Assembly: GCF_017798005.1 (NCBI RefSeq)
Contig: NZ_CP072548.1
Location: 1,178,001-1,242,000 of the forward strand
Length of the DNA stretch: 64,000 bases
Direction of reading: 5' to 3'
From: Aggregatibacter sp. 2125159857
GTDB taxonomy: Bacteria > Pseudomonadota > Gammaproteobacteria > Enterobacterales > Pasteurellaceae
The notes under the pieces are model-generated. The model saw nothing but the letters and a program-made list of their open reading frames with translations. It did not search any database and was not told the DNA's origin. Of the stretch, positions 4,606 to 62,374 are shown one piece after another. Within the stretch, counting starts at the first letter, position 1. Every line of letters starts with the position of its first letter. The translations under genes were made by a program, and so were the position numbers.

Positions 4606-5793
4606 TTATTTCACCGTGACCTTGGCGAATTTGCGTTTACCCACTTGGTAAACCGCAGTCGAAGTACTAATAACAAGTTTGGCGTCTTCTACTTTTTCAC
4701 CGTCAATTTTCACGCCACCTTGTTGTACCATACGGTTGGCTTCTGAAGTCGAAGCCACTAACCCGGCTTCTTTTAATAAGTTGGCAAGCCCAATTTCGCC
4801 TTCAAAGGTAAATTCAGGCATGTCATCCGGCATCGCGCCTTTTTGGAAGCGGTTGATAAATTCTTGTTCAGCCGCCTCTGCCGCTGCGTCATCATGGAAA
4901 CGGGCAATAATTTCTTTGGCTAATAAGATTTTTACATCCCGTGGATTTTTGCCGTTTGCCACATCTTCTTTCAGTTGGGCAATTTCTGCTAATGGACGGA
5001 AAGAAAGCAGGTTGTACCAATCCCACATTAAGTCATCAGAAATGGACATGATTTTGCCGAACATTTCGCTTGGTGCTTCGGTGACACCGATATAGTTGCC
5101 AAGGGATTTGGACATTTTTTTCTCGCCATCCAAGCCCACTAATAATGGCAGCGTGATTGCCACTTGTGGTTTTTGACCGGCAGATTTTTGTAATTCACGA
5201 CCCACTAATAAATTGAATTTTTGGTCGGTTCCGCCTAACTCAACATCGGCTTCCAACGCAACAGAATCATGACCTTGTAAGAGCGGGTAAATAAATTCAT
5301 GAATCGCAATCGGTTGATTGTTAGAGAAACGTTTTTTGAAATCATCACGTTCTAACATACGGGCAACAGTGTAGTTACTTGCTAAACGAATCATGCCTTC
5401 GGTGCCTAATTTACCCAACCATTCGGAGTTGAATACGATACGGGTTTTTTGTGGATCGAGGATTTTGTAAATTTGTTGTTTATAGGTTTCCGCATTGCGT
5501 AATACATCTTCGCGGCTAAGTGGCGGACGAGTCGCATTTTTACCGGATGGATCCCCCACCATGCCGGTGAAGTCACCGATTAAGAAATAAACTTCGTGGC
5601 CTAATTGTTGGAATTGACGTAATTTGTTTAATACTACAGTGTGACCTAAATGAATATCCGGTGCGGTTGGGTCTGCGCCGAGTTTTATGCGCAATGGGCG
5701 ATTTTCTTTAAGTTTTTCAATTAAATCCTGTTCAGAAAGAATTTCATCTACGCCGCGTTTTAGTTCTGCGAGAACGGTATTCATATCAGTCAT
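4606..5793 (-). CDS. tyrS: tyrosyl-tRNA synthetase
   Basis: Class I aminoacyl-tRNA synthetase that charges tRNA-Tyr. The 395-residue protein has the HIGH-type motif HLGH near residue 48, the KMSKS loop near residue 232, and a C-terminal S4 RNA-binding domain ([18 protein letters not shown]). It belongs to the longer TyrS form common in Haemophilus. The ATG at 5793 follows AGGAAAAG at good spacing; a second ATG three codons later is less well placed. A terminator upstream isolates it from sfsA and the candidate small RNA. Confidence 0.97.
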
Positions 5794-5889: not shown

Positions 5890-5924
5890 CGAAAAAAAAC
5901 GCCTCTTGTGGGGGATGAGGCGTT
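5890..5924 (-). terminator. intrinsic terminator of the candidate small RNA
   Basis: AACGCCTC (5898-5905) pairs with GAGGCGTT (5917-5924). On the minus strand the stem is followed by eight Ts. It also insulates tyrS from sfsA read-through. Confidence 0.85.
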
Positions 5925-5957
5925 GAAGTTGGAGTGATTATCTATTGTTGTTTGAAT
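5890..5957 (-). ncRNA. candidate Fur-regulated small RNA (RyhB/HrrF-like in role)
   Basis: A strong promoter (see 5964-6016) would start a transcript near 5957 on the minus strand, and the only element downstream is an intrinsic terminator at 5890-5924. The product would be about 68 nt. No convincing reading frame fits. The transcript has a C-rich single-stranded stretch before the hairpin and in its loop (CAUCCCCCACA), of the sort that pairs with ribosome-binding sites. It sits alone between sfsA and tyrS. The promoter and terminator are seen in the sequence; the RNA and its iron control are inferred from the Fur boxes. Confidence 0.6.
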
Positions 5958-5963
5958 GATTAA

Positions 5964-6016
5964 ATGATAATTATTCTCAAAATTAATGTCAAGCACTTTA
6001 ATGAAAATAATTCTCA
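5964..6016 (-). promoter_or_regulatory. sigma-70 promoter with two Fur-box-like sites
   Basis: On the minus strand TTGACA (5987-5992) and TATCAT (5964-5969) are separated by exactly 17 bases. A 7-1-7 palindrome at 5965-5979 matches the Fur core TGATAAT-N-ATTATCA at 13 of 14 positions and covers the -10 and spacer. A second at 6002-6016 matches at 12 of 14 and lies just upstream of the -35. Their centres are 37 bases apart. This arrangement predicts iron-dependent repression. Confidence 0.75.
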
Positions 6017-60919: not shown

Positions 60920-62374
60920 ATGAAATTTATTATCAAATTATTTCCTGAAATTATGATTAAAAGCGAATCCGTGCGGAAACGGTTCGTGAAAATTCTGACC
61001 AGCAATATTCGTAATGTATTAACAAAATATGATGATACAGTCGCGGTAATAAAGCATTGGGATTACATCGAAGTGCGGTCGAAAATCGACGCAAATTTAC
61101 CGATGCTTATCGAGCAGTTACAACGCATTCCAGGCATTCACCATTTTCTGCAAGTGGAAGAGAAGCCCTTCGCGAACTTGCATGAGATTTTTGAGCAAAC
61201 ACTGTCAGATGTGGCATCCCAATTAGAAAATAAGACTTTTTGCGTGCGTGTGAAACGTAAAGGCAAACATGAATTTAATTCACTGGAAGCTGAGCGTTAC
61301 ATCGGTGGCGGATTGAATCAACATATTGCCAGCGCCAAAGTACAACTGAAAAATCCGGATGTGACGGTGCGTATTGAAATTGAAGACGACAAAATGATGC
61401 TGGTGCGTGCCCGTTATGAAGGTATCGGCGGTTATCCGATCGGCACACAGGAAGATGTATTGTCGCTGATTTCCGGCGGGTTTGACTCCGGCGTGTCTAG
61501 TTATATGTTGTTACGTCGCGGTTCACGCGTGCATTATTGCTTCTTTAATTTAGGCGGTGCGGCACACGAAATTGGCGTAAAACAAATGGCATATCACATT
61601 TGGCAACGTTACGGTAGCTCCCACAAAGTGCGTTTCGTGGCGATCAATTTTGAAGGCGTGGTAGGCGAGATCCTGGAGAACGTGGATAACGGGCAAATGG
61701 GCGTGGTGCTTAAACGTATGATGGTGCGCGCAGCGTCTAAAATCGCGCAACGTTTCGACATTCAGGCGATTGTGACAGGAGAGGCGCTAGGACAGGTTTC
61801 CAGTCAAACCTTAACCAATTTGCGTTTAATTGATGAAGCCGCTGAGGTGTTGGTGTTACGCCCATTAATTACACACGACAAAGAAAAAATCATCGCCATG
61901 GCAAAACACATCGGCACCGATGATATCGCCAAATCTATGCCGGAATTTTGCGGCGTGATTTCCAAAAATCCGACAGTGAAAGCGATCAAAGCGAAAATTG
62001 AACAGGAAGAAGGCAATTTCAATTTTGCCGTGCTAGAAAGTGCGGTGGAAAATGCGCAATATTTAGATATTCGCCAAATTGCCGAGCAAACGGAGAAAGA
62101 CGTCGTTTCCGTGGATGCCGTGTCTGTGTTGGGGGCAAATGATGTGATTATTGATATTCGTAGCCCGGAAGAAATCGACGAAACCCCGTTGCACATTGAA
62201 AATCAAGCGATGATTCAGCTGCCGTTCTATAAACTTTCCGGTCAATTCGCCGAGTTGGATCAAAGTAAGCATTATGTGCTGTATTGCGAACGTGGCGTGA
62301 TGAGCAAATTGCAGGCGCTGTATTTGAAAGAAAGTGGATTTAATAACGTGAGTGTGTTTAAAAAATCACGTTAA
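60920..62374 (+). CDS. thiI: tRNA 4-thiouridine synthase / thiazole sulfurtransferase ThiI
   Basis: 484 residues. N-terminal ferredoxin-like and THUMP domains, PP-loop ATPase motif [17 protein letters not shown] near residue 183, a cysteine in MPEFCGVIS, and a C-terminal rhodanese domain with the persulfide cysteine in [12 protein letters not shown]. Both cysteines needed for 4-thiouridine formation at tRNA position 8 are present. It would receive sulfur from a desulfurase such as IscS, or possibly CsdA. Confidence 0.96.

What the first reader, a model, noticed from the sequence alone, without database searches (positions are those of the whole stretch)
5890..6016. Fur-box-covered promoter driving an orphan terminator: candidate iron-regulated sRNA
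A near-consensus promoter (TTGACA, 17 bases, TATCAT) lies downstream of the sfsA stop, with Fur-like palindromes at 5965-5979 and 6002-6016. An intrinsic terminator ends the unit about 68 bases after the predicted start and there is no open frame. This is the layout of RyhB-type sRNAs, and a Fur-controlled sRNA (HrrF) is known in Haemophilus. Whether this is the HrrF orthologue or another RNA I cannot tell.
Basis: partly seen in the sequence, partly recalled or inferred. Interest (0 to 1): 0.72.

Follow-up and report, generated by a model that had tools for sequence, protein, structure and literature searches.

The report
Iron-starvation small RNA of Pasteurellaceae
Between two ordinary genes lies what looks like a gene for a roughly 65-letter regulatory RNA, controlled by the iron sensor Fur and kept by almost the whole Haemophilus/Pasteurella family, which probably shuts down iron-rich respiratory enzymes when iron is scarce, much as RyhB does in E. 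coli.

Summary
It is not chance. A covariance model of the unit matches 137 of 140 family genomes; among 295 genomes of the order its 24 matches are all in this family. The terminator stem covaries strongly (score 0.725 vs 0.210 shuffled). A Fur box covers the -10 in 92 of 93 copies.

It is not HrrF, which lies elsewhere in the same genome; the locus reaches no Rfam family's threshold.

New here: two conserved unpaired segments, UAAUCACUCCAA and the terminator loop CCCCACA, are antisense to ribosome-binding sites of heme/Fe-S respiratory genes (nrfA, fdnG, hybO, napB, rnfC). nrfA and fdnG use opposite segments in different genera. In H. influenzae the nrf, fdn and nap operons supply 14 of the 20 core genes expressed less under iron/heme limitation. 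A 2016 A. actinomycetemcomitans study reports an unnamed Fur-bound, iron-induced sRNA predicted to target nitrite reductase, probably this one. Expression and pairing are inferred, not shown.

The parts
5987..5992 (-). -35 hexamer TTGACA
   Evidence: TTGAC(A/T) in many genera, poor in Actinobacillus-like ones
5964..5969 (-). -10 hexamer TATCAT, 17 bases from the -35
5965..5979 (-). Fur box 1 (13 of 14 letters), overlapping the -10
   Evidence: 12-14 of 14 letters in the same register in 92 of 93 copies (five of the 14 letters are shared with the -10 by which copies were located)
6002..6016 (-). Fur box 2 (12 of 14 letters), upstream of the -35
   Evidence: weaker elsewhere, 8-13 of 14
5892..5957 (-). 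predicted sRNA, about 65 nt; start inferred from promoter spacing
   Evidence: model R1 matches 5892-5956 with 60.7 bits; no start codon
5929..5940 (-). segment A, UAAUCACUCCAA, mostly unpaired, complementary to ribosome-binding sites
   Evidence: present in 30 of 30 loci found by blastn without the motif; 8-12 of its 12 letters unpaired in 59 predicted folds
5898..5924 (-). intrinsic terminator hairpin (8 bp, 11-nt loop) followed by a U-run
   Evidence: covariation
5907..5913 (-). segment B, terminator loop CCCCACA, complementary to TGTGGGG sites
   Evidence: the longer loop complement lies at nrfA starts of G009, G012, G018

Best explanation
This is the gene of a Fur-repressed, trans-acting, iron-sparing sRNA found in Pasteurellaceae. 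With iron, Fe-Fur covers the -10 and blocks transcription. Without iron, a ~65-nt RNA is made that ends at its own terminator. Its single-stranded segment A (UAAUCACUCCAA, anti-Shine-Dalgarno) and its C-rich terminator loop (segment B) pair with ribosome-binding sites of mRNAs for heme- and Fe-S-rich anaerobic respiratory proteins (nrfA, fdnG, hybO, napB, rnfC, less surely norB and ccmD), blocking translation and probably destabilising the mRNAs. Shown here by sequence: anatomy, conservation, covariation, Fur-box register, complementarity and its excess over controls. Inferred: transcription, Fur binding at this locus, pairing in the cell, direction of the effect.
For: 137 of 140 family genomes carry it. 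Stem covariation 0.725 against 0.210 shuffled and at most 0.174 slid. Fur box in constant register in 92 of 93 copies. All four exact copies of the segment A complement outside the sRNA gene in 10 genomes lie at ribosome-binding sites, three of them of nrfA, fdnG and a hydrogenase small subunit. nrfA: 9 of 28 start regions with 13-14 bases of segment A complement and 3 with 11-12 bases of loop complement; fdnG: 17 of 30 with >=9; hybO: 5 of 7 with >=9; control start regions: 1 of 339 with 9, none more. Segment use is swapped between nrfA and fdnG in different genera. Duplex energies in the window's genome for nrfA, napB, hybO and rnfC are reached by 0 of 339 controls. nrf, fdn and nap make up 14 of the 20 core genes expressed less under iron/heme limitation in H. 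influenzae (PMC3879429, passages); an unnamed Fur-bound, iron-induced sRNA predicted to target nitrite reductase in A. actinomycetemcomitans (PMC5156373, section 6).
Against: No transcript, Fur binding or pairing measured here. The HrrF study calls HrrF the single Fur-regulated sRNA of its NTHi strain. Many orthologous start regions have no long match: 11 of 28 nrfA at most 7 bases, 13 of 30 fdnG at most 8, 2 of 7 hybO at 6. Segment A contains the anti-SD CUCC, and about 16 of the 60 pattern rows read look like starts of non-iron genes. norB is matched in energy by 7 of 339 controls, more than the non-iron yhcB with 4. The same operons are under FNR/HlyX, ArcA and other control, so their iron response need not be due to an sRNA; in chinchilla ears many of them were not lowered (passage).
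Confidence: 0.82

Rival explanations
1. It is HrrF or another already catalogued sRNA (JA01-JA04, AaHKsRNA, RyhB, PrrF, NrrF).
For: HrrF is Fur-regulated, conserved in Pasteurellaceae and of similar layout.
Against: RF02728 hits another place in the same genome over its cut-off. No Rfam family reaches its threshold here, and the seven matches at E<=10 are unrelated families with chance-level scores. In the five loci scanned, two of A. actinomycetemcomitans and one of H. influenzae among them, no Rfam match at E<=0.5 overlaps the unit (coordinates).
Confidence: 0.03
2. It is a cis element: the 5' leader/attenuator of tyrS, or the 3' end of sfsA, with a Fur-controlled promoter.
For: tyrS lies about 100 bases downstream in the same direction, sfsA directly upstream.
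Against: Of 61 pattern loci 43 have enough flank on both sides: 15 have both genes, 11 only sfsA, 16 only tyrS, 1 neither, yet unit and Fur box are kept. The conserved letters are antisense to other genes' ribosome-binding sites.
Confidence: 0.05
3. It is a Fur-regulated sRNA, but the target matches are mostly a by-product of its anti-SD letters; its real targets are different.
For: Segment A contains CUCC; start regions of apparently non-iron genes (UxaB-like, glpF-like, yhcB, SirB2-like) also match.
Against: Matches are far longer than in 339 control start regions with the same SD bias. A permuted GGAG pattern gave no clear iron-protein start in 30 loci (one, L430, unidentified) against 7 of the first 30 for the real pattern. 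The loop complement TGTGGGG is not a usual SD, and the swap of segments between nrfA and fdnG is hard to explain by SD drift. The candidates coincide with published iron/heme-lowered operons.
Confidence: 0.09

Closest known systems
HrrF (Rfam RF02728), H. influenzae
   Same: Fur-controlled sRNA of Pasteurellaceae ending in an intrinsic terminator
   Different: Other locus (pmbA-hpt by PMC4144887), ~97 nt, other sequence, separate copy in this genome; reported targets modABC, asnA/asnC, nrdB, which its authors say do not fit iron sparing
RyhB / PrrF / NrrF
   Same: Works alike if correct: Fur-repressed RNA pairing with start regions of iron-protein mRNAs (acnB, a known RyhB target by recall, is among the candidates in G018)
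   Different: No Rfam match at this locus
IsrR of Staphylococcus and IsaR1 of cyanobacteria
   Same: C-rich unpaired segments against G-rich ribosome-binding sites; IsrR acts on nitrate/nitrite respiration genes (recalled; for IsrR only the search listing of PMC9410917 and PMC11257911 was seen; IsaR1 recalled only)
   Different: Unrelated organisms; no sequence comparison made beyond the Rfam scans
Unnamed second iron-induced sRNA of A. actinomycetemcomitans 624 (PMC5156373)
   Same: Iron-induced, promoter bound by Fur in ChIP-seq, predicted to target nitrite reductase (sections 6 and 9)
   Different: Probably the same RNA; its coordinates are in a supplement not opened, so identity is unproven

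Membership tests
HrrF (RF02728) | Matches the Rfam covariance model | tested here: not met
   No match here at E<=10; the genome's HrrF is at C1:633379-633510
HrrF (RF02728) | Lies between pmbA and hpt | tested here: not met
   Lies between sfsA and tyrS; flanks of the genome's own HrrF copy were not checked
JA01-JA04 (RF02729-RF02732 by PMC5753348) | Matches the Rfam covariance models | tested here: not met
   Absent from the E<=10 list and, over the unit, from the E<=0.5 list for five loci including two of A. actinomycetemcomitans
RyhB, PrrF, NrrF sequence families | Matches an Rfam covariance model | tested here: not met
Fur-repressed iron-sparing sRNAs (functional class) | Promoter covered by a Fur box | tested here: met
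   Sequence only:
Fur-repressed iron-sparing sRNAs (functional class) | Fur binding and induction on iron loss | not testable with these tools
   Suggested by PMC5156373 if its second sRNA is this one
Fur-repressed iron-sparing sRNAs (functional class) | Antisense to start regions of iron-protein mRNAs more than control genes | tested here: met
Fur-repressed iron-sparing sRNAs (functional class) | Represses those mRNAs in the cell | not testable with these tools
   Needs deletion and reporters
Hfq-dependent sRNAs | Binds or needs Hfq | not tested
   An 8-T run at the terminator is present; terms for this locus were not found in the main text of the H. somni Hfq study

The most novel reading that the evidence does not exclude
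This RNA is the missing RyhB of the Pasteurellaceae: one Fur-controlled ~65-nt RNA whose two seeds, a linear anti-SD segment and the terminator loop itself, coordinately silence nrf, nap, fdn, hyb, rnf, nor and ccm, and so explain most of the 'iron/heme-replete' core genes of H. influenzae. The two seeds are interchangeable in evolution: a target can swap from one to the other between genera while staying in the regulon.
Probability: 0.6. Interest if true: 0.85.

Novelty: new member of a known kind. Interest (0 to 1): 0.78.

Why it matters
A 2010 study of A. pleuropneumoniae left open whether a RyhB-like RNA acts in Pasteurellaceae (PMC3091793, passage), and HrrF's reported targets did not fit iron sparing. 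A family-wide RNA with long antisense matches in the very operons that fall under iron limitation would close that gap for Haemophilus, Aggregatibacter, Pasteurella, Mannheimia and relatives, and makes the question testable with one deletion and a few reporters. The apparent exchange of seed sites between nrfA and fdnG would be a natural record of how an sRNA regulon is kept while its sites turn over.

Tried and rejected
HrrF and other Rfam identities: rejected. tyrS leader or sfsA 3' end: rejected on synteny breaks. EvsRna13 of A. pleuropneumoniae (gloA2-sfsA, 248 nt; PMC10708910, passage): probably different, because the Actinobacillus-like loci here have the unit by tyrS without sfsA directly upstream; not proven. 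RNAalifold on the first MAFFT alignment gave no structure because stems of different length were misaligned; solved with a same-length subset and a covariance model. A first reading of nrfA start regions ignored locus strand and was redone. The loop pattern with one mismatch mostly hit coding sequence and was uninformative. Literature: the core letters occur in no paper of the open-access library; searches pairing sfsA or tyrS with sRNA terms found nothing on this locus; a last search on iron-sparing sRNAs of the family listed none beyond HrrF among the 20 of 71 papers shown. UxaB-like, glpF-like, yhcB and SirB2-like matches are left as possible chance or extra targets (names recalled from sequence, except SirB2, which has a weak NCBIfam match below its cut-off). 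ccmD: the strong match lies in codons for a conserved W-S-D, so protein constraint cannot be excluded.

Full report
What is there. On the minus strand, after the sfsA stop (6027), lie TTGACA (5992-5987), a 17-base spacer and TATCAT (5969-5964), then a hairpin with a U-run, and then tyrS (4606-5793, minus). The promoter and terminator scans as such find no more sites than shuffles do, so the case does not rest on them. The hairpin folds with z = -4.8. The stretch 5957-5888 contains no ATG, GTG, TTG or CTG. Two matches to the Fur 7-1-7 consensus (recalled) lie at 5965-5979, overlapping the -10, and at 6002-6016, upstream of the -35; with up to two mismatches the window holds 3 matches against 0.35 expected.

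Conservation. A blastn search with 151 bases matched 39 of 61 genomes at E<=0.001. Of the 37 genomes of the window's own family 36 had a hit; that in G033 was a 26-base match elsewhere, and the covariance model later placed the unit at another position there. Three genomes outside the family had hits of 27-55 bases at E 4.7e-4 to 6.8e-4, which I take as chance. All 30 loci fetched by that search, which used no motif, carry G(A/G)TAATCACTCCAA. A motif scan of GTDB species genomes gave 61 records, whose names I recognise as Pasteurellaceae except one labelled Pseudomonas stutzeri NCTC11607, which carries the same sfsA and tyrS neighbours; H. influenzae, [H.] ducreyi, A. actinomycetemcomitans and M. 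haemolytica are among them. The window's genus holds genomes whose contig lengths equal those of Aggregatibacter segnis records. A covariance model from 14 sequences found the unit in 137 of 140 family genomes; G019, G144 and G154 gave none. In 295 genomes drawn from the order, 24 matched, all of this family; the other 271, most of which are not listed by name of family and may include G019, did not. In genus g65 several genomes have inserted sequence between start and core and lower scores; Fur-like sequence, core and loop are visible in those read, while G033 and G153 have altered cores.

Structure. In 59 distinct transcripts the hairpin forms with 6-7 of the 7 loop letters CCCCACA unpaired and 8-12 of the 12 letters of UAAUCACUCCAA unpaired. 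On 60 distinct rows 96.6% of cells pair (66.7% shuffled), and the covariation score is 0.725 against 0.210 shuffled and at most 0.174 slid; all 10 pairs show changes on both sides, but shuffles reach that in 214 of 500 cases, so this count says little by itself. The alignment was fitted to the structure, which favours it. The stem changes freely while loop and segment A do not, as expected if the stem is only a terminator and the unpaired segments are read by something. For the motif-selected loci the constancy of the motif is partly by construction; for the blastn and model hits it is not.

Promoter. In 92 of 93 copies in 91 loci (some loci are duplicates of one genome) the best Fur box near the -10 has 12-14 of 14 letters, always in the same register; L022, with a variant -10, was not scored. 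Copies were located by TATCAT or TATCAA, which fixes five of the 14 letters. The upstream box is weaker (8-13 of 14 in 91 scored copies). The -35 is near consensus in most Haemophilus/Pasteurella/Aggregatibacter-type copies and poor in Actinobacillus-like ones.

Not a cis element. Of the 61 motif loci, 43 have enough flank on both sides: 15 lie directly between sfsA and tyrS, 11 keep only sfsA, 16 only tyrS, 1 neither. Two genomes have tandem copies (L014, L093), each with its own Fur box.

Not HrrF. RF02728 matches G000 once over its cut-off of 77 bits, at C1:633379-633510 with 94.4 bits. The window locus reaches no family's threshold, and at E<=10 the scan lists seven unrelated families with chance-level scores. 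In five further loci no Rfam match at E<=0.5 overlaps the unit.

Candidate targets. The complement of segment A, TTGGAGTGATTA, was sought in 10 genomes with up to one mismatch; the row list is cut, but exact matches come first among the fetched loci. Exact copies outside the sRNA gene number four and each is a ribosome-binding site: nrfA in the window's genome (a 14-base match ending at the GTG start), a hydrogenase small subunit in G110, formate dehydrogenase alpha in G123 and a UxaB-like gene in G032. NCBIfam or Pfam support NrfA, hydrogenase 2 small subunit, formate dehydrogenase-N alpha, NapB, RnfC, AcnB, YtfE and a NorB-like nitric oxide reductase for one representative each; several pieces were incomplete and so below NCBIfam's cut-offs. 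Further copies were named by likeness.

Orthologous start regions. nrfA (28 of 32 genomes): 9 carry 13-14 contiguous bases of segment A complement; 5 more have the same site with one interruption; 3 instead carry 11-12 bases of loop complement, namely G009 and G012 (contig lengths equal to the Bibersteinia trehalosi and [H.] ducreyi records) and G018; the other 11 have at most 7 bases. fdnG (30 loci fetched of 32 matches in 31 of 32 genomes): 17 carry >=9 bases on the segment A side, one of them (L253) only through its 5' extension; the Aggregatibacter genomes G000 and G004 instead carry 8 and 7 bases of loop complement; 13 have at most 8. So G000 and G004 have segment A on nrfA and the loop on fdnG, and G009, G012 and G018 the reverse. 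hybO (9 of 32 genomes; 7 analysed, L300 dropped for a short locus and L302 for an in-frame stop): 5 carry >=9 bases, 2 carry 6. Among 339 control start regions from held loci and the window (first ATG of long ORFs), 1 has 9 bases and none more; one of the five with 8 bases is itself an fdnG. The three genes were picked because one genome each gave an exact match, so only the other genomes are independent tests, and they are related to one another.

A less biased scan, GGAGTGAT followed within 0-9 bases by ATG or GTG in 6 genomes, gave 78 rows. I read 60 of them: 12 are starts of iron proteins (napB in four genomes, fdnG, nrfA and norB in two each, ytfE and an LldE-like Fe-S protein in one each); about 16 look by eye like starts of other genes; the rest are ccmD codons, other internal sites or no ORF. 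Four of the 18 unread rows are iron-protein starts by coordinate (hybO twice, fdnG twice). A permuted pattern keeping GGAG gave 55 rows; in its 30 fetched loci I see no clear iron-protein start, one (L430, a cysteine-rich protein with 126 open bases upstream) being unidentified, against 7 among the first 30 loci of the real pattern. The loop pattern TTGTGGGG gave 118 rows, of which 40 were read: rnfC in G000 and G103, acnB and nrfA in G018, the others non-iron or not starts; fdnG of G000 is an unread row known by coordinate. In the window's genome, duplex energies to nrfA (-21.7), napB (-17.0), hybO (-15.2) and rnfC (-15.1 kcal/mol) are each reached by 0 of 339 controls, fdnG (-14.9) by 1, norB (-13.2) by 7, and the non-iron yhcB (-13.6) by 4, so norB alone does not stand out.

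Published expression. In H. influenzae 20 genes form the core expressed more in iron/heme-replete cells; the authors state that fdnGHIE, napDAGHBC and nrfABCD make up 14 of them, and ccmF and the ferritins are also there, though not every gene responds in every isolate and many of these operons were not lowered in chinchilla ears (PMC3879429, passages; PMC2627913, passages). In A. pleuropneumoniae nrfA heads the energy-metabolism list of lowered genes under iron restriction in one study, and fdn, hya, nap and ykgE/lldE fall in these or later ones (PMC1832192, PMC3091793, PMC12507848, passages). Those authors discuss FNR/HlyX and ArcA, and one group adds that a RyhB-like RNA would fit. In A. 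actinomycetemcomitans two sRNAs rise under iron restriction and are bound by Fur: one homologous to HrrF, the other unnamed and predicted to target nitrite reductase, one of the most lowered products (PMC5156373, sections 6 and 9). That second RNA is probably this one; its coordinates are in a supplement that I could not open.

Against. The HrrF study calls HrrF the single Fur-regulated sRNA of NTHi 86-028NP (PMC4144887; read: outline, passages, section 4 part 1, sections 24 and 26, section 28 part 1). Its candidate regions came from cells grown in sBHI and TruSeq libraries, a setting in which a ~65-nt Fur-repressed RNA could be missed; that is my inference. Many orthologous start regions lack a long match. 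No tool here measures RNA, Fur binding or pairing.

Verdict. The best reading is a Fur-repressed iron-sparing sRNA of the Pasteurellaceae, without an Rfam family, that works like RyhB without belonging to it. What I did not find in the papers seen is the family, its two pairing segments, the target set and the apparent exchange of sites. What is probably not new is the RNA itself, seen once, unnamed, in A. actinomycetemcomitans.

Noticed in passing
L142, L144, L145 (G094, G078, G095): Weak second hits of the model: a short unit with TATGACTCCAAAT, a hairpin with T-run and a promoter-like stretch but no visible Fur box; possibly a sibling sRNA sharing ACUCCAA.
   Followed up: no
L014 (G029) and L093 (Pasteurella bettyae): Two tandem copies of the sRNA gene, each with its own Fur box, as in PrrF1/PrrF2-type twins.
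   Followed up: partly
L134, L139, L141 and other genomes of genus g65: An insertion with a further hairpin-like repeat lies between the -10 and the core.
   Followed up: partly
L092, record CABDVE010000001.1: Labelled Pseudomonas stutzeri NCTC11607, but 1.9 Mb and with the Pasteurellaceae unit, sfsA and tyrS; the label is probably wrong.
   Followed up: no
window 60921-60935: A third Fur-like box (2 mismatches) in the window.
   Followed up: no
L049:6685-6782 and L046:2336-2504: Rfam AaHKsRNA22 (over its cut-off) and AaHKsRNA41 (below its cut-off) match elsewhere in the fetched A. actinomycetemcomitans loci, not overlapping this unit.
   Followed up: no
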